Shown here one piece after another: positions 1-8,146 of a stretch of 64,000 bases of DNA. The position numbers and the translations under genes are program-made. Below the pieces are notes generated by a model. The model was not told the DNA's origin. It made no database searches and saw nothing but the letters and a program-made list of their open reading frames with translations. The DNA is from Pseudanabaena sp. PCC 7367. Lineage in GTDB: Bacteria > Cyanobacteriota > Cyanobacteriia > Pseudanabaenales > Pseudanabaenaceae. Numbering within the stretch: position 1 is the first letter of the stretch; each line of letters opens with the position of its first letter. The stretch lies in assembly GCF_000317065.1 (NCBI RefSeq), contig NC_019690.1, positions 248,001-312,000 on the forward strand. Direction: 5' to 3'.

Positions 1-1350
1 AGCCTTGTAATGCACTTTCAGCCGTTGGCACAGGTTCCGCATTAGGCTTACTCTATGCCCCAGCAGGACGATCTTTTGGGTGGGAGCAACTAGCTTAGCG
101 ATCGCCTTGGTTTTGCCCGTACCCTTGGCCGATTTCAGCGCTATGATACCAGTTTGGGGCACAGCGGCAGGATTCAAGCCATAGTCCAGATTTGGTGTAT
201 CTAGTTCTAGACTCGGTGCATGGGTGAGGCGTTGCTGATTGTGCCATTGCCATTGATAGCTGGCCAGGGGTAAGGCTTGTCCATAGAGGTTCTGCCAGGC
301 TGGTTGGCTTTCTGCGCCCTGCGCCACCAGAAAATCATCCACCCCGGTTTTGTCTGTGCCTGGGAGCAGCGGCAATCGCACCACCCGCACATTGCAGCCC
401 GCCTCGGTGAATAAATTGCCAGTTCTGATTGTGGCGGTATAGACAGCCTGGGCGGTTTTGAGCTTGGTTTCTGCGTCAAAGCAAAAGTAGATCGGGCGAG
501 AATCGGCAGCAAAGGCATTTAGATAGGGCTGGAGCGCCACCTGCTCTTTTTGGTTTTCATTACCTTCTGTATCTTGATTATGCTTAACCCGTCCCATTGT
601 GATCCCACTGAGGGCGATCGCCGCCTGCCCGATCGAGAGCAACGCGCAAGCCTTTTTCATCCCCTCAGTAATCACGATCGAAATCTGGGGGTTTTCAATC
701 AGCCAATCCCAGAAGCCATAGCCATTATCATCACCTAACTGGCCAGCATTAGATCCAGCATCAGCGCTAGCGTAATAATTATTACTTATATATATGGACT
801 TGTTGGCGGGATTAATCGGGCAAGCGATCGGCAATTGATATTGCTCCGCGATGGTTTGCCAAACTTGAAAGGTTACCTGGGCAAATCCACCCACCTGACC
901 GCGACCGGCTGGGTTTTCATACTTACGTGCTTTACCTTTGCGAGAATCGAATATAGGGTTGCTAAGCTTGACCTGAAAAACATCAGTGTGGCGATCGATG
1001 GGGTTCCAGGTAGAAATAATTGCGCCAAACTGCCGAGGGCGTTGCAACTTCCCGCCCAGCGAGAATCGCCAGCGTTTGACCCGCCAATTTAAAGATTCAT
1101 GAAGTGGGTAGATTACCTCACCTCCGTGTAAATGCTCCTCATCGGCTGCTACACGGACGTTGGCAAAAAATAACTCAGGCGCGATCGCGCTGTCAATGAT
1201 CCATTCCTGGGCGGTTTTAGCCTGGAATTTGGCCAGCTCTGATGCTGGATTGGCGGGAAAGTCAGCCTGGTTATGGCCCTTGAAAAAATTTCCTATTTCT
1301 GAGGCCGAAAAGCTTTGAGTTGCTTGACTTTTTCGGTATACTATAGCCAT
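1..1350 (-). CDS. CyRepA1/DUF3854-type plasmid replication protein (partial, C-terminus outside window)
   Basis: The minus strand is open from an ATG at 1350 to the window edge, giving at least 450 codons. An early-middle segment carries a TOPRIM-like DUF3854 region (ITEGMKKACALLS, then FCFDAETK). Near the edge a helicase-like part begins with a P-loop (KSAKGTGKTKA) followed by VLLGHRVSLMRNLC. This order, primase-like TOPRIM then SF2-like helicase, is that of the cyanobacterial plasmid replication proteins called CyRepA1, which start replication of small plasmids. Here the gene lies about 1.5 kb from a phycobilisome linker gene, so an integrated plasmid or a chromosomal homologue is inferred. 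The start overlaps the stop of the 79-codon ORF upstream. A weak AGGA lies 9 bases before the ATG. The rest of the helicase cannot be judged. Confidence 0.8.
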   Translation of the reverse strand, partial: MAIVYRKSQATQSFSASEIGNFFKGHNQADFPANPASELAKFQAKTAQEWIIDSAIAPELFFANVRVAADEEHLHGGEVIYPLHESLNWRVKRWRFSLGGKLQRPRQFGAIISTWNPIDRHTDVFQVKLSNPIFDSRKGKARKYENPAGRGQVGGFAQVTFQVWQTIAEQYQLPIACPINPANKSIYISNNYYASADAGSNAGQLGDDNGYGFWDWLIENPQISIVITEGMKKACALLSIGQAAIALSGITMGRVKHNQDTEGNENQKEQVALQPYLNAFAADSRPIYFCFDAETKLKTAQAVYTATIRTGNLFTEAGCNVRVVRLPLLPGTDKTGVDDFLVAQGAESQPAWQNLYGQALPLASYQWQWHNQQRLTHAPSLELDTPNLDYGLNPAAVPQTGIIALKSAKGTGKTKAIAKLVAPTQKIVLLGHRVSLMRNLCQRLKVHYKA

Positions 1351-1580
1351 ATACTATGTCCTAGTATGATTTCGACTCTATGTCCTAGTACGATTTCGAG
1401 CGATCGATTAGTGCTTATAGCCAATGAACTAGTTGATTTATTTCGATTAGCTTGCGGGTTAATACAGTGGCCTAATTGATTTCGAGATTTATCTAGACCC
1501 ATAGGAATAGCTGGAGTCGCACAAGGGTTAGTTCCCTTTGCACACAGCACCGCATTGCTCCTGTTTAAACAGCTAATCAA
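1341..1580 (-). CDS. 79-aa ORF overlapping the start of the replication gene; last of a mini-ORF cascade
   Basis: This ORF starts with TTG at 1580, with GGAGG 8 bases before it, and ends with TAG inside the first codons of the replication gene (ATG at 1350), so the two overlap by 10 bases. Its TTG overlaps the TGA of the preceding mini-ORF (TTGA). The product resembles no family I know. Its C-terminus contains a duplicated VEIILGHS-like segment encoded by the two iteron-like repeats. It may be a leader peptide whose translation is coupled to the rep gene, or a chance frame across cis elements. The strong ribosome site and the overlaps favour translation, but this is inference. Confidence 0.4.
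   Translation of the reverse strand: MISCLNRSNAVLCAKGTNPCATPAIPMGLDKSRNQLGHCINPQANRNKSTSSLAISTNRSLEIVLGHRVEIILGHSIWL
1354..1399. repeat. Two 22-bp iteron-like direct repeats at the start of the replication gene
   Basis: Copies at 1354-1375 and 1378-1399 match at 21 of 22 positions (single T/C difference at 1367/1391), with a period of 24 bp. They lie just upstream of the replication protein's ATG. Directly repeated 20-22 bp sites beside a rep gene are typical of iterons bound by the initiator. Only two copies are present, so origin function is inference. Confidence 0.45.
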
Positions 1581-1911
1581 TTTCTTGCCCTCCGGGGTTT
1601 TGAATTGGTTGAGTTAAAACAATTAGTCAATTTTTTTCCTCCTTTGGAATTGAGTTGTTTCTAATTGAAAATCTAATCAAGTTATGCTCCTTTGTGAGTA
1701 TGGGTTGGTTGAAAATCTAATCAAGGTATATGCCTCCGGGAATATAGTTTGGTTGGTTCTAATTAACTGCCTCCTTCGGGAGTTGAGTTGGTTAAAACAA
1801 ACAAAAACAAATAGATAGGTAATTTAATTGCCTCCTTCCAATTGGATAGTTTTAATTAATTTGAATTGATTTGATTAATTTGGGTTGATTTGGATTGATT
1901 AGTTTTGCTCC
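1557..1911 (-). repeat. Degenerate tandem units, each carrying a Shine-Dalgarno-like GGAG(G)
   Basis: On the minus strand GGAG/GGAGG blocks recur at about 1907, 1831, 1770, 1733, 1687, 1638, 1588 and 1557, spaced 31-76 bp. Most are followed 5-8 bases later by TT(G/A)ATTAG or a variant. The four units nearest the replication gene keep TTGA and form the mini-ORFs. The upstream two have TTAA, which would lose the TTG start, and the first is more diverged. Plus-strand reading shows the same units as CCTCC...GGTTGGTT. Confidence 0.5.
1577..1724 (-). other. Three tandem overlapping mini-ORFs (15, 17 and 17 codons) with strong ribosome sites
   Basis: Reading the minus strand, TTG starts at 1724, 1680 and 1630 open frames ending at 1677, 1627 and 1577. 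Each stop overlaps the next start as TTGA. Each TTG is preceded by GGAGG or AGGAG at 6-8 bases. The peptides begin MIRFSTNP, MIRFSIRN and MTNCFNST, and the fourth member is the 79-codon ORF (MISCLNRS), so the units appear to be diverged duplications. The arrangement suggests ribosomes re-initiating step by step toward the replication gene. Leader-peptide control of replication genes is established for some plasmids, but this particular cascade is my reading only. Confidence 0.4.
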
Positions 1912-2204
1912 TTTTGGATTGTTTGGTTAATTAGGTTAGTTATTTAGTTGTCTCTATTGGTTTCTAGAAAGTTAATTTTGGTTATTCGCATTTCCTAATA
2001 ACTTTCTGAAACATTTTTCAAAAGACGCTACCTTTTCCAGGGGTGGCGTTTTTTGATGCATTTTGAGCGAAAACAATTCGGTAGTCCTTGTCTAGAAAAA
2101 GCATTACCTGGAAAAAAGGTGCAGCTTTCTGGTTTCTATGGTTATCAAAACCAGAAATTAATTTCTAAACCCGTTTCGTGTTGTTCAAAATGTAATCTTG
2201 TAAA
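1725..2204. other. Noncoding, AT-rich, hairpin-rich segment
   Basis: No convincing gene is visible apart from the repeat units described separately. Inverted repeats are frequent: AGAAAGTTA (1966-1974) with TAACTTTCT (1999-2007), a terminator-like hairpin at 2022-2056, and a 10-bp perfect stem TTTCTGGTTT (2126-2135) with AAACCAGAAA (2148-2157). With the neighbouring iterons and replication gene, this could be a former plasmid origin or control region. That is inference from structure only. Confidence 0.4.
2022..2056 (+). terminator. Rho-independent terminator-like hairpin
   Basis: An 11-bp stem with two G-U pairs joins AAGACGCTACC (2022-2032) to GGTGGCGTTTT (2042-2052), with a 9-base loop and a run of T. 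No plus-strand gene ends here, so it may end a small RNA or an antisense transcript of the replication region. Confidence 0.55.
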
Positions 2205-2367
2205 CCTGTGAGTTGCGATCGCTGGAAAGCCGCTCACAAAGATCACCGTAGGATTATATCTTACACGGATTAGCCCGACAGCGGAATCACTAAACCTGGT
2301 GTACTGGGTGGAGCAAAGGCTATGCCCACAAGTGCCCGAATGGCGGAAACCGCCGCGATCTTTTTTT
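2205..2367 (+). ncRNA. Candidate structured RNA of unknown family
   Basis: This stretch folds by eye into a series of stems: GTGAG (2208-2212) with CTCAC (2233-2237); a closing stem AAAGATC (2238-2244) with GATCTTT (2357-2363); an inner CCGTA/TAC-CGG hairpin; TGGGT..AGC/GCT..GCCCA; and finally GGCGG-AAA-CCGCC (2342-2354) followed by GCGATC and seven T (2361-2367). The end looks like an intrinsic terminator and the long-range closing stem suggests one compact RNA. I could not match it to RNase P, tmRNA, 6S, SRP or a common riboswitch. Confidence 0.4.
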
Positions 2368-2444
2368 CAGGCTGGTCTGGGGCGCAAATTTTGGCTTATT
2401 GTGGTTCTTTTCCACTTAACTTTTCACTTAAGATTTATTAATAA

Positions 2445-2564
2445 ATGATCGTTTCTCCTGGCCAAATCATCGCGGTCGATCATAGCACCAGTGACAAGGG
2501 CGATCGGTATCGCTTAGGATCAGCGGAATTGAAACAAGCCGCCGCCAAATTAACCAGGTTTTGA
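2445..2564 (+). CDS. 39-aa ORF, possible gene remnant
   Basis: An ATG at 2445 opens 39 codons beginning MIVSPGQIIAVDHS and ending KLTRF. Composition looks protein-like (IAVDHSTSDKGDRY), but I recognise no family. No clear ribosome site precedes it (ATTAATAA). It could be the surviving end of a larger gene on the plasmid-like segment. Nothing else is evident between 2565 and 2900 except the leader of cpcG. Confidence 0.2.
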   Translation: MIVSPGQIIAVDHSTSDKGDRYRLGSAELKQAAAKLTRF

Positions 2565-2900
2565 TTAAACTATTTGCTACTAGCCCAACTTAAACGCAAA
2601 ACCATAGACTATGCTTGATGACATGGCGATATGATATGGCGATATAACATAGCGATCGAGACGCTACTGCGATCGTCTGGAGAAATTGCCATGCATAGAC
2701 AGCAATGAGTATAAATGCTTAGCTAGAGCATTGCTTGCTTAACATAACTTCACAACATAAGGTGTAGATTTGCCTAGTGTTTCGATGATTTGCTTAAAGA
2801 AAGTACACAAATCAGCCAAAAATAAGCACAAGTAGATAAACTGAGGTAAATTTAGTTTAAATAAGCATTCTAAGCAATTTTAAGAATCGGAGATTTAATT

Positions 2901-3659
2901 GTGGCTATACCGTTACTAGATTATTCGCCGACAAGCCGAAATACCAGGGTTACTGGTTATGAGGTTGCCAGTGAAGAGCAGCCGAAGATCTATTCAACCT
3001 CAGATTTGCCATCAGCTTCAGCAATTGAAGATGTAATCTGGGCGGCTTATCGTCAAATTTTTAGCGAACATCAATTATTAGAAAGTAATCGCCAACCTTT
3101 ACTGGAGTCACAGTTTAAGTTTGGCCAAATTAGCGCCCGTGATTTTATTCGTGGTCTGGCCACCTGTGATACTTTCCGTCGCCTCAACTACGATGCTAAC
3201 AGTAATTATCGGTTTTCCCGGATGATGGTGCAGCGTATTCTTGGGCGCGATTTCTACAACAAGCGCGAAGAATTGGCCTGGTCGATCACTCTTTGTACCA
3301 AGGGTCTGAACGCCTTCATCGATCAACTTGTAGACAGCGACGAGTATTTAGACAGCTTTGGTGATGACACCATCCCCTATCAGCGCCGCCGCATTCTGCC
3401 CCAGCGCAAGGGTGGCGAAGTGCCGTTTAATCTGGAAACCCCCCGCTATGGTGACTATACCCGTGCCAAGCTTGGTTTCCCTCAGGTGATCTGGCAAACG
3501 GCGGTACGTACTTATATGACTACCGATCGCAAGCCAAAAGTTGGCGATCCGGCCAATTTCTTGAACATGGCACGTACGATCGCCCCCAGAGGCGGCCCGG
3601 CTCCGCGTGTTTCGGCTCAAAATATTGATTTGAACAAGGTTCCTTACCGCAAACGCTAG
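2901..3659 (+). CDS. cpcG: Phycobilisome rod-core linker CpcG
   Basis: The 252-aa product starts with GTG at 2901, preceded by CGGAGA at about 7 bases. It begins MAIPLLDYSPTSRNTRV, the usual CpcG start, followed by one phycobilisome linker (PBS_linker_poly) domain at about residues 20-160, with FRRLNYDANSNYRF, VQRILGRDFYNKREELAWS and DDTIPYQRRRILPQR. The C-terminal third is polar and basic (ends NKVPYRKR) and has no membrane segment, so this is the core-attaching type rather than the CpcL type seen at 26177. It joins the phycocyanin disc nearest the core to allophycocyanin. It stands alone, with an intrinsic terminator 140 bases downstream. Confidence 0.93.
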   Translation: MAIPLLDYSPTSRNTRVTGYEVASEEQPKIYSTSDLPSASAIEDVIWAAYRQIFSEHQLLESNRQPLLESQFKFGQISARDFIRGLATCDTFRRLNYDANSNYRFSRMMVQRILGRDFYNKREELAWSITLCTKGLNAFIDQLVDSDEYLDSFGDDTIPYQRRRILPQRKGGEVPFNLETPRYGDYTRAKLGFPQVIWQTAVRTYMTTDRKPKVGDPANFLNMARTIAPRGGPAPRVSAQNIDLNKVPYRKR

Positions 3660-3797
3660 GGTTTTAGGGTTTAGGAATTGATTCCTTATCGATTGGTATT
3701 TGAATTGTTTGATTGTTTGTCTATTGAGCTTCTGTTTTAGTTTAAATATTCAGCTTAAATAAGCAATTTAGAATATCTATTTTATTATTTTATTGAC

Positions 3798-3834
3798 AAC
3801 AGGGTCGCCGTAAATGGTTGCCCTGTTTTGCTTT
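3798..3834 (+). terminator. Terminator downstream of cpcG
   Basis: AACAGGG (3798-3804) pairs with CCCTGTT (3821-3827); inner bases also pair (CC/GG). The stem is followed by TTTTGCTTTT. It lies 139 bases after the cpcG stop. Confidence 0.75.
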
Positions 3835-3882
3835 TACAGGTGAAAGCACTTAAACTAATAGCTCATCAAATCCAGGTGCATA

Positions 3883-4449
3883 ATGAAACAACAATTAGCC
3901 CAAGCCCTTTTAATTAGCAGCCTTGCTACCGTTGCCATTGCCTCCCCTGCCCAAGCTCTGGACTTTTTCTTTTCCTTCAATAATGATGATTTAATACCTA
4001 GCACTGTTCCTGGAACGGTCAGTGGTCGTATCCTGGGCTTGACTGATAACGCTACTGGGTCAGCTACCAGTATCATCATTGATGACTTCCCAATGGCTTT
4101 AGGAGGCACTTTTGTAATCGGTAGTGATGCAGCTGCTTGGACGATTGATGAGCATAGCTTTACGGTCATAAATGGGAATATTACTGCTGCTAACTTTGAA
4201 GCTCTCGCGGGTCCCAATATTTTTTGTCTGAACGCCTTCGTGCCTAGTGGGCAATGCGCTAATGGTTCTGTTTTAACTCTTGATGCTGTAACTACGCGTG
4301 TTGTCAACAATGGTGGATTTGCAGCGATCACATTCACGCCCGTTCCTTTTGAGTTTGAAGCCTCGCTGGGGCTGATTGCGCTGGGTGCGATGGCTGGTGG
4401 TTATGCTTATTCTAAAAAACGCAAGGCAAATAAGAAGATCGCTGCTTAG
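3883..4449 (+). CDS. Exported protein with PEP-CTERM-like (PFE-type) C-terminal sorting signal
   Basis: The 188-aa protein has a signal peptide (MKQQLAQALLISSLATVAIASPAQA) with a likely cut after AQA near residue 25. A mainly beta-type body has few recognisable motifs. The C-terminus has PVPFEFEASLGLIALG, a hydrophobic stretch, then the basic tail SKKRKANKK. The motif-hydrophobic-basic layout is that of cyanobacterial exosortase substrates; this PFE form occurs in many cyanobacterial surface proteins. It should be secreted and then cut and anchored or released by an exosortase, which is not in this window. A related protein with nearly the same tail is at 11727. The stop is 1 base from the end of a convergent Uma2 gene. 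Confidence 0.7.
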   Translation: MKQQLAQALLISSLATVAIASPAQALDFFFSFNNDDLIPSTVPGTVSGRILGLTDNATGSATSIIIDDFPMALGGTFVIGSDAAAWTIDEHSFTVINGNITAANFEALAGPNIFCLNAFVPSGQCANGSVLTLDAVTTRVVNNGGFAAITFTPVPFEFEASLGLIALGAMAGGYAYSKKRKANKKIAA

Positions 4450-4450
4450 T

Positions 4451-5041
4451 TTATTCCCACATAAACCCCAAATTCAACTCAAACCCTGGCAACACATCCC
4501 GACCAGATAGGGTTTTGGGCGATTCCAGCAATTCTTTTTCTGGCTGAGCATCCTGGTCAGGTTGATATACTTCCACCTGCTTCTTCTCTGGATTAATCAA
4601 CCAACCAAGTCTAGCCCCATTTTCGATATATTCCACCATTTTGGCTTGAACCACTTTCAGCACATCGGTAGGGGACATCAACTCCACCACAAAATCAGGA
4701 CAGATGGGCGGAAATTTTTCCCTTTGCTCCATATTCAAAGCATCCCAGCGTTCCTTCCGCACCCAGCTCAGATCTGGAGAGCGAATTGCCCCATTTGGCA
4801 AAACAAACCCGCCATTAGAGTCAAATACATAGCCAAGCTTAATTTTTCGATTCCAAAATACCAGATCGGCATTTAGCTCCGAATTTGACTTACTGGTTTC
4901 TCCACCGGTGGGCGACATAATAATTAAATCTCCATTGGCGCTGCGCTCAAATCGCAGGTCAGGATTGCGGCGACAAAGCAGATAGAACTGTTCATCGCTT
5001 AATTCTATGACTGATCCTAGATTCAGGGTATGGGCTGTCAT
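4451..5041 (-). CDS. Uma2 family endonuclease-like protein (type A)
   Basis: The 196-aa protein belongs to the DUF820/Uma2 family, which has a PD-(D/E)XK nuclease-like fold and is amplified in cyanobacteria; its cellular role is not established. Family landmarks are LCRRNPDLRFERSANGD, MSPTGGETS, IRSPDLSWVRKERWD, CPDFVVELMSP and EYIENGARLGWLINP. The acidic residues in SPDLSW and PDFVVEL with the following K/Q...Y helix form the presumed active site. At least eight type A copies or remnants share this start (MTAHTLNLxSV). It runs convergently with the sorting-signal protein at 3883. Confidence 0.85.
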   Translation of the reverse strand: MTAHTLNLGSVIELSDEQFYLLCRRNPDLRFERSANGDLIIMSPTGGETSKSNSELNADLVFWNRKIKLGYVFDSNGGFVLPNGAIRSPDLSWVRKERWDALNMEQREKFPPICPDFVVELMSPTDVLKVVQAKMVEYIENGARLGWLINPEKKQVEVYQPDQDAQPEKELLESPKTLSGRDVLPGFELNLGFMWE

Positions 5042-7540: not shown

Positions 7541-8146
7541 ATGACCGCCCACACCCTCAACCTTGAATCAGTCATAGAACTAAGCGATGACCAATTCTAT
7601 CTGCTTTGTCGGCGCAATCCTGACTTGCGGTTTGAGCGCAGCGCCAATGGAGATTTAATTATTATGTCACCCACTGGATATGAAACCAGTAGACGCAATT
7701 TCAGCCTGATAGTTAAATTTGGCTACTGGGTTGAGCAAAATGACTTGGGCTATGGATTTGACTCTAATGGCGGGTTTATTTTACCAAATGGTGCAATTCG
7801 CTCTCCAGATTTGAGTTGGGTGCGCAAGGAACGCTTAGATGCTTTAAGCATGGAAACAGGAGATCAATTTCTACCGATTTGCCCTGATTTTGTGGTGGAG
7901 TTGATGTCTAAGACTGATCGCCTTTCGGTAACTCAGGCGAAGCTGATTGAATATATCGAAAACGGGGCTAAGCTGGGTTGGTTAATAAATCCGAAGGCGC
8001 AGCAAGTAGAAATCTATCGCCCCAATTCAAGGTCAGGTCAAGATGCTCAGCCAGAAAAAGAATTATTAGAAATGCCGCAAACCCTATCTGGTGAAGAGGT
8101 GTTGCCAGGGTTTGAGCTGGATTTAGATTTTATCTGGGAGGAATAA
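7541..8146 (+). CDS. Uma2 family endonuclease-like protein (type A)
   Basis: The 201-aa type A Uma2 protein shows LCRRNPDLRFERSANGD, AIRSPDLSWVRKERLD, CPDFVVELMSKTD and KLIEYIENGAKLGWLIN. It differs from neighbours in the FSLIVKFGYWVEQNDLGYGF segment, which it shares with the copy at 30392. It is followed after 5 bases by a type B gene, an arrangement repeated at 8828/9415 and 51765/51178, so A and B may be a functional pair. Confidence 0.85.
   Translation: MTAHTLNLESVIELSDDQFYLLCRRNPDLRFERSANGDLIIMSPTGYETSRRNFSLIVKFGYWVEQNDLGYGFDSNGGFILPNGAIRSPDLSWVRKERLDALSMETGDQFLPICPDFVVELMSKTDRLSVTQAKLIEYIENGAKLGWLINPKAQQVEIYRPNSRSGQDAQPEKELLEMPQTLSGEEVLPGFELDLDFIWEE

What the first reader, a model, noticed from the sequence alone, without database searches (positions are those of the whole stretch)
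1341..1724. Cascade of four overlapping TTG-started mini-ORFs leading into a plasmid replication gene
On the minus strand, ORFs of 15, 17, 17 and 79 codons follow one another. Each start overlaps the previous stop as TTGA, each has GGAGG or AGGAG at 6-8 bases, and the last overlaps the start of the CyRepA1-type gene. The units are diverged duplications; three more upstream units keep the ribosome-like site but lost TTG. This suggests stepwise translational re-initiation setting the level of the replication protein. I know of no such multi-step leader described for CyRepA1 plasmids.
Basis: partly seen in the sequence, partly recalled or inferred. Interest (0 to 1): 0.62.

Follow-up and report, generated by a model that had tools for sequence, protein, structure and literature searches.

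The report
Stepwise ribosome relay before plasmid replication gene
In front of the replication gene of a large cyanobacterial plasmid lie four tiny overlapping reading frames, each with its own strong ribosome-binding site, and because related plasmids often show a simpler version (one small frame overlapping the same gene) this looks like an elaborate form of a widespread, un-annotated device for setting plasmid copy number.

Summary
On the minus strand, ORFs of 15, 17, 17 and 79 codons start with TTG at 1724, 1680, 1630 and 1580. They join by TTGA overlaps, each with GGAGG/AGGAG 6-8 nt upstream, and the last overlaps the CyRepA1 start (ATG 1350) by 10 nt. Three further GGAG units lie upstream without a start. 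With SD matches of at least 5 nt this is the only chain of three or more in the 1.53 Mb of this genome scanned. The window lies on a separate 328,634-bp contig, and the 1139-aa product passes the CyRepA1 cut-off. The multi-step cascade is not conserved: no relative shows more than two steps. Its core is: 14 of 50 independent CyRepA1 upstream regions hold a leader ORF of 40 or more codons overlapping the rep start by 4 or 1 nt (2.9 expected; 5 of 91 control genes). On the studied plasmid pSYSA, ssr7036 runs by TTGA into a 55-codon ORF that runs by TAATG into rep. Leader peptides show no purifying selection. Antisense-oriented terminators are common upstream of CyRepA1, one here at 2018-2056. 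Best reading: a copy-control leader coupled to rep by termination-reinitiation, elaborated here by tandem duplication. No expression data; rep-binding repeats remain a rival.

The parts
1677..1724 (-). mini-ORF 1, TTG start, 15 codons (MIRFSTNPYSQRSIT), stop overlaps next start as TTGA
   Evidence: GGAGG 8 nt upstream
1627..1680 (-). mini-ORF 2, TTG start, 17 codons (MIRFSIRNNSIPKEEKN), TTGA junction
   Evidence: AGGAG 6 nt upstream
1577..1630 (-). mini-ORF 3, TTG start, 17 codons (MTNCFNSTNSKPRRARN), TTGA junction
   Evidence: AGGAGG 7 nt upstream
1341..1580 (-). leader ORF 4, TTG start, 79 codons, overlaps the CyRepA1 ATG by 10 nt
   Evidence: frame open to the rep start in 0.26% of shuffles; no homologue by tblastn
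1..1350 (-). CyRepA1-family replication gene, 5' part (whole gene 1139 aa, C1:245931-249350)
   Evidence: NF042913 470 bits versus cut-off 200; DUF3854
1359..1362 (-). weak SD-like AGGA 8 nt before the CyRepA1 ATG
1589..1593 (-). SD GGAGG of ORF 4
1638..1643 (-). SD AGGAGG of mini-ORF 3
1687..1691 (-). SD AGGAG of mini-ORF 2
1733..1737 (-). SD GGAGG of mini-ORF 1
1770..1775 (-). SD-only unit AGGAGG (GGAGGCAGTTAATTAG), no start codon; lies in a predicted hairpin
   Evidence: z -2.7
1831..1836 (-). SD-only unit AGGAGG, no start codon
1908..1912 (-). SD-only unit AGGAG, no start codon
1354..1399 (.). two 22-bp direct repeats, 24 bp apart, 95% identical, just before the rep start and over its SD; candidate operator or Rep site
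   Evidence: only two copies on the 328-kb contig
2018..2056 (+). strong intrinsic terminator facing away from rep (18-bp hairpin, T6): candidate end of an antisense RNA over the leader
   Evidence: -23.1 kcal/mol on +, -12.0 on -; antisense terminators are a family trend
1315..1342 (+). sigma-70-like promoter pointing into the leader (candidate antisense promoter; not above chance)
   Evidence: 4 found, 5.8 expected in shuffles

Best explanation
The stretch 1341 to about 1960 is the copy-control leader of the plasmid's CyRepA1 gene. Ribosomes enter at one or more strong Shine-Dalgarno sites, translate very short ORFs, terminate at TTGA and re-initiate in place on the next TTG. They then translate the 79-codon leader ORF, which ends inside the rep start region, and so load the rep gene, whose own SD (AGGA) is weak. 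The act of translation matters, not the peptides. A single coupled leader ORF is the common family device; tandem duplication of its SD-plus-start segment made the multi-step version here. An antisense RNA ending at 2018-2056 probably opposes it, as asRNA1 does on pSYSA. Shown: the anatomy, the chance tests, the family-wide overlap of leader ORF and rep, drifting peptides, the antisense terminator trend. Inferred: transcription, translation, re-initiation, the antisense RNA, the effect on Rep level and copy number.
For: Exact junctions and SD spacing. Unique chain of strong SDs in 1.53 Mb. TTG4 frame open to rep by chance 0.26%. Leader ORF of 40 or more codons overlapping the rep start by 4 or 1 nt in 14 of 50 independent clusters versus 2.9 expected (0 of 200,000 simulations) and 5 of 91 control genes; without leaders of 100 aa or more still P = 0.004; second set 8 versus 1.9, with some redundancy to the first. 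pSYSA: ssr7036 -TTGA- 55 codons -TAATG- slr7037. S. elongatus plasmids: 9-codon MKLFVRGGR-type ORF with SD, TGATG into rep, in four plasmids. The only indel between the L101 and L105 leaders is 168 nt, in frame. Cyanobacteria make ample use of SD for re-initiation at overlaps (PMC6728339). Antisense terminators upstream of rep 29 versus 14 sense.
Against: No relative has more than two coupled steps, so the cascade is not conserved and could be a by-product of tandem duplication. No RNA or ribosome data. Leader peptides show no purifying selection (dN/dS about 1 or more), which also fits non-coding DNA. Predicted local folding does not leave the SDs especially accessible. The 79-codon ORF has below-gene codon scores (-0.09 versus 0.13 for genes) though it is the best frame on its strand. 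Direct-repeat arrays upstream of rep in relatives offer a DNA-level alternative.
Confidence: 0.52

Rival explanations
1. The units are origin DNA: degenerate iteron-like repeats plus an AT-rich unwinding stretch (1850-1900) bound or melted by the Rep protein; GGAGG and TTGA are incidental parts of the repeat.
For: Iteron-like direct-repeat arrays lie upstream of rep in relatives: 7 copies at -670 to -214 in Synechococcus PCC 7502, 11 in L109, 10 in L113, 6 in L099; the window array sits at a similar distance (-211 to -562) from rep. The AT-rich short repeats at 1850-1900 fit an unwinding element.
Against: Copies here are diverged except for the SD and TTGATTAG boxes, spacing varies 37-76 bp, and only 3 copies match at 14-mer level with 2 mismatches. 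All three inter-TTG distances keep the frame for the overlap. None of the relatives' repeats listed looks SD-like.
Confidence: 0.25
2. Only the last step matters: ORF 4 is an ordinary coupled leader ORF; the upstream mini-ORFs and SD units are neutral leftovers of a decaying tandem duplication. (This overlaps with the best explanation, of which it is the minimal form.)
For: Cascade unique to this plasmid; upstream units lack a start; mini-ORF interiors open by chance with joint P about 0.2; peptides differ.
Against: G is rare in the leader (48 of 411 nt) and 27 of those lie in SD neighbourhoods: SD boxes stay intact in all seven units while flanks drift. The inter-TTG distances 44, 50, 50 all keep the overlap frame (sequence).
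Confidence: 0.35
3. The SD array acts without translation steps, as a ribosome-loading platform or as the pairing target of an antisense RNA.
For: Seven SD units but only four with a start; strong antisense terminator; antisense RNAs pairing with SD regions are proposed for pSYSX (PMC10899382) and the ssr7036/asRNA1 pair on pSYSA is proposed to control copy number (PMC9978351).
Against: Does not explain the exact TTGA junctions or the 79-codon open frame.
Confidence: 0.2

Closest known systems
pSYSA ssr7036/asRNA1-slr7037 copy-control locus of Synechocystis PCC 6803 (PMC9978351)
   Same: Same Rep family; leader upstream of rep; sequence shows ssr7036 -TTGA- 55-codon TTG ORF -TAATG- rep; an antisense RNA there matches the candidate here.
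   Different: Two coupled ORFs of 64 and 55 codons, no SD-unit array. In the passages read the authors treat the spacer as intergenic and discuss RNA priming; the paper never uses the term 'translational coupling'. Expressing ssr7036 in trans with a stop codon still raised copy number, so a peptide role there is unlikely.
Leader-peptide-coupled rep genes under antisense RNA control (IncFII R1 tap-repA; IncI repY-repZ), from own knowledge
   Same: Short leader ORF whose translation ends at or in the rep start and is needed for rep translation; antisense RNA blocks it.
   Different: One leader ORF and a structured RNA or pseudoknot there; here four in series, Rep protein not of that family.
Termination-reinitiation at overlapping gene pairs (PMC6728339)
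   Same: Stop/start overlap with SD; cyanobacteria use SD mostly there.
   Different: Known for gene pairs; here a series of ORFs too short to be ordinary genes.
GCN4 uORF leader of yeast (own knowledge)
   Same: Several uORFs with re-initiation set the level of one downstream protein.
   Different: Eukaryotic scanning mechanism; unrelated.

Membership tests
CyRepA1 plasmid replication proteins | passes NCBIfam NF042913 cut-off | tested here: met
   470 bits versus 200 over residues 400-998
CyRepA1 plasmid replication proteins | encoded on an extrachromosomal replicon and needed for its replication | tested here: inconclusive
   lies on a separate 328,634-bp contig, single copy in the genome; need for replication not testable
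termination-reinitiation coupling | stop/start overlap with SD at each junction | tested here: met
   three TTGA junctions with SD 6-8 nt upstream; last junction is a 10-nt overlap with a weak AGGA
termination-reinitiation coupling | downstream translation depends on upstream translation | not testable with these tools
   needs reporters
leader-ORF-coupled rep genes | leader ORF overlapping the rep start recurrent in relatives | tested here: met
   14 of 50 clusters versus 2.9 expected; the multi-step form is not conserved
antisense-RNA-controlled plasmids | antisense transcript over the leader | tested here: inconclusive
   terminator at 2018-2056 + and family trend; promoter not above chance; no RNA data
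iteron plasmids | near-identical, regularly spaced direct repeats at the origin | tested here: not met
   SD units diverged and irregular; only two good 22-bp repeats at 1354-1399
attenuation or stalling leader peptides | conserved peptide or regulatory codon run | tested here: not met
   no codon runs; four peptides differ; relatives' leaders show no purifying selection

The most novel reading that the evidence does not exclude
A bacterial multi-step re-initiation relay: four ribosome hand-overs in series, with three further SD sites, lower or buffer the flow of ribosomes to a replication initiator, each step being a target for an antisense RNA, as the extreme form of a coupled leader that is widespread but un-annotated in CyRepA1 plasmids.
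Probability: 0.33. Interest if true: 0.7.

Novelty: new variant of a known kind. Interest (0 to 1): 0.5.

Why it matters
How large cyanobacterial plasmids set their copy number is poorly known and matters for vectors. The comparison shows that the spacer in front of CyRepA1, including the one on the model plasmid pSYSA, often carries an un-annotated ORF overlapping the rep start, so coupling by re-initiation can be tested at once in Synechocystis. If the cascade here works, it would be a natural case of several re-initiation steps in series in a bacterium.

Tried and rejected
Rfam over 1-4000 with a permissive threshold: nothing. Local RNA structure as the conserved element: mean z -0.4 over eight units, only units at 1774 and 1642 below -1.8; whole leader z -0.8 to -1.1. 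Paralogous arrays in the genome: none; five other triple-GGAGG matches on the larger contig, none of the same kind, and equal numbers of the reversed control pattern. Same DNA elsewhere: short low-complexity or chance matches only in 386 genomes, and on plasmids hits only in or near rep genes with none over the cascade itself. Homologue of the 79-aa product: no credible one in plasmids. GC skew as evidence for an origin here: no clear minimum near 250 kb. Shared ACTAGRAC core between PCC 7502 repeats and the 22-bp repeats: not enriched on the contig, dropped. 16S anti-SD check: the 3'-end pattern was not found in the held assembly, so left open; genes of 250 aa or more do show SD enrichment (14.7% versus 3.6% at 5 nt or more).

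Full report
Observation. Three more GGAG units (1774, 1835, 1911) lack a start. The units are diverged tandem repeats. The 411-nt leader 1580-1990 holds 48 G, 27 of them in SD neighbourhoods; 10 overlapping GGAGG/AGGAG matches compare with 0.56 in shuffles. Chains of SD-led ORFs joined by NTGA were counted in 1.53 Mb of the same genome, both strands: with SD of 5 nt or more this is the only chain of three or more; with 4 nt it is the only chain of four. Since the units are copies of one another the repetition is one event, not four. What is independent is that TTG4 reads open to the rep start, which happens in 0.26% of shuffles.

Setting. The window lies on a 328,634-bp contig separate from a 4,557,046-bp contig. 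Size and content fit the plasmid of Thalassoporum (Pseudanabaena) PCC 7367; that name is my inference. The 1139-aa product is a CyRepA1 protein (470 bits, cut-off 200), single in the genome. The noncoding stretch to cpcG at 2901 is about 1.5 kb.

Relatives. CyRepA1 upstream regions were collected from plasmids, GTDB contigs and whole genomes. None has the four-step cascade; the most is two steps. But many have an un-annotated ORF whose stop overlaps the rep start by exactly 4 (NTGA) or 1 (TAATG/TGATG) nt. After clustering 86 loci to 50, 14 have such an ORF of 40 or more codons, 2.9 expected when the upstream DNA is shuffled with the junction and last 20 nt kept, 0 of 200,000 simulations reaching 14. 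Among 91 other gene starts in the same loci, 5 do (P = 0.0004). Leaving out leaders of 100 aa or more, which may be ordinary genes, P = 0.004. A second set, partly redundant with the first, gave 8 versus 1.9. The hypothesis arose from the first set, and rep starts of unannotated loci were chosen by rule or by inspection; both are sources of bias.

pSYSA. In Synechocystis PCC 6803 the annotated ssr7036 stop overlaps a TTG (CGCTTGATATC) preceded by GGGGGTG; the 55-codon ORF from it ends TAATG on the slr7037 start. The copy-control paper speaks of an ssr7036-slr7037 intergenic spacer and does not use the term translational coupling. So the TTGA junction of the window has a counterpart at the best-studied member of the family. 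In four S. elongatus plasmids a 9-codon ORF (MKLFVRGGR, MYLFVRGGR, MYLSVRGGR) with an SD joins rep by TGATG.

What is under selection. Pairs of related leaders show dN/dS about 1 or more, while the frame stays open; the only indel between L101 and L105 is 168 nt, a multiple of three. This fits selection on translation through the leader rather than on a peptide, but is also compatible with non-coding DNA; the enrichment of open frames argues for the former.

Antisense side. A strong + strand terminator lies at 2018-2056 (-23.1 kcal/mol against -12.0 on the other strand; 22 such sites on that strand of the contig). I saw no convincing + strand gene just before it that would need it. Upstream of rep in 51 loci antisense-facing terminators outnumber sense-facing ones 29 to 14 (P = 0.03) and are far denser than inside rep genes. 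An antisense RNA over the leader is therefore likely, as known for pSYSA and pSYSX (PMC9978351, PMC10899382). The promoter candidate at 1315-1342 + is not above chance.

Mechanism. Cyanobacteria are reported to use SD sequences little for de novo initiation but amply for re-initiation at overlaps (PMC6728339). Strong SDs at four overlapping starts followed by a weakly equipped rep gene fit a re-initiation relay. I hold the coupled leader likely (about 0.5 for the full statement) and the extra steps as either functional or leftover.

Main rival. Direct-repeat arrays, iteron-like, lie upstream of rep in several relatives, in PCC 7502 at a similar distance as the SD array here. The window units are too diverged and irregular for typical iterons, and their conserved boxes are the SD and the start, but Rep binding has not been tested.

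Verdict. Observation confirmed, interpretation partly supported: a lineage-specific elaboration of a recurrent coupled leader that was not described in the papers I could read.

Noticed in passing
L044 2646-3004 (pSYSA, NC_020287.1): The ssr7036-slr7037 'intergenic spacer' is a 55-codon TTG ORF, TTGA-joined to ssr7036 and TAATG-joined to the CyRepA1 gene.
   Followed up: yes
L045, L280, L282, L289 just upstream of rep: S. elongatus plasmids share a 9-codon ORF (M[KY]L[FS]VRGGR) with its own SD, overlapping rep as TGATG.
   Followed up: partly
L101 and L105 upstream of rep: Leader ORFs of 167 and 223 codons that differ by one in-frame 168-nt insertion and look internally repetitive.
   Followed up: partly
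L036 2283-2739; L109, L113, L099, L108: Iteron-like direct-repeat arrays upstream of CyRepA1 genes (7, 11, 10, 6 and 5 copies), likely origins.
   Followed up: partly
window 2901-3659 +: A phycobilisome rod-core linker (CpcG-like) gene on the 328-kb contig, below the cut-offs of the named CpcG models.
   Followed up: no
whole genome G000: No ParB_N (PF02195) match on either contig although the control S. elongatus has one; a ParA-like ATPase is at C1:42251-42796.
   Followed up: no
window 3883-4449 +, 4451-5041 -, 7541-8146 +: A PFE-CTERM sorting-signal protein, and two similar genes of about 200 codons nearby that look like Uma2-type proteins (named by eye).
   Followed up: no
L002 8818-9411 -: A RelE/HigB-like and HigA-like pair directly downstream of CyRepA1, as often on plasmids (named by eye from the sequences).
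   Followed up: no
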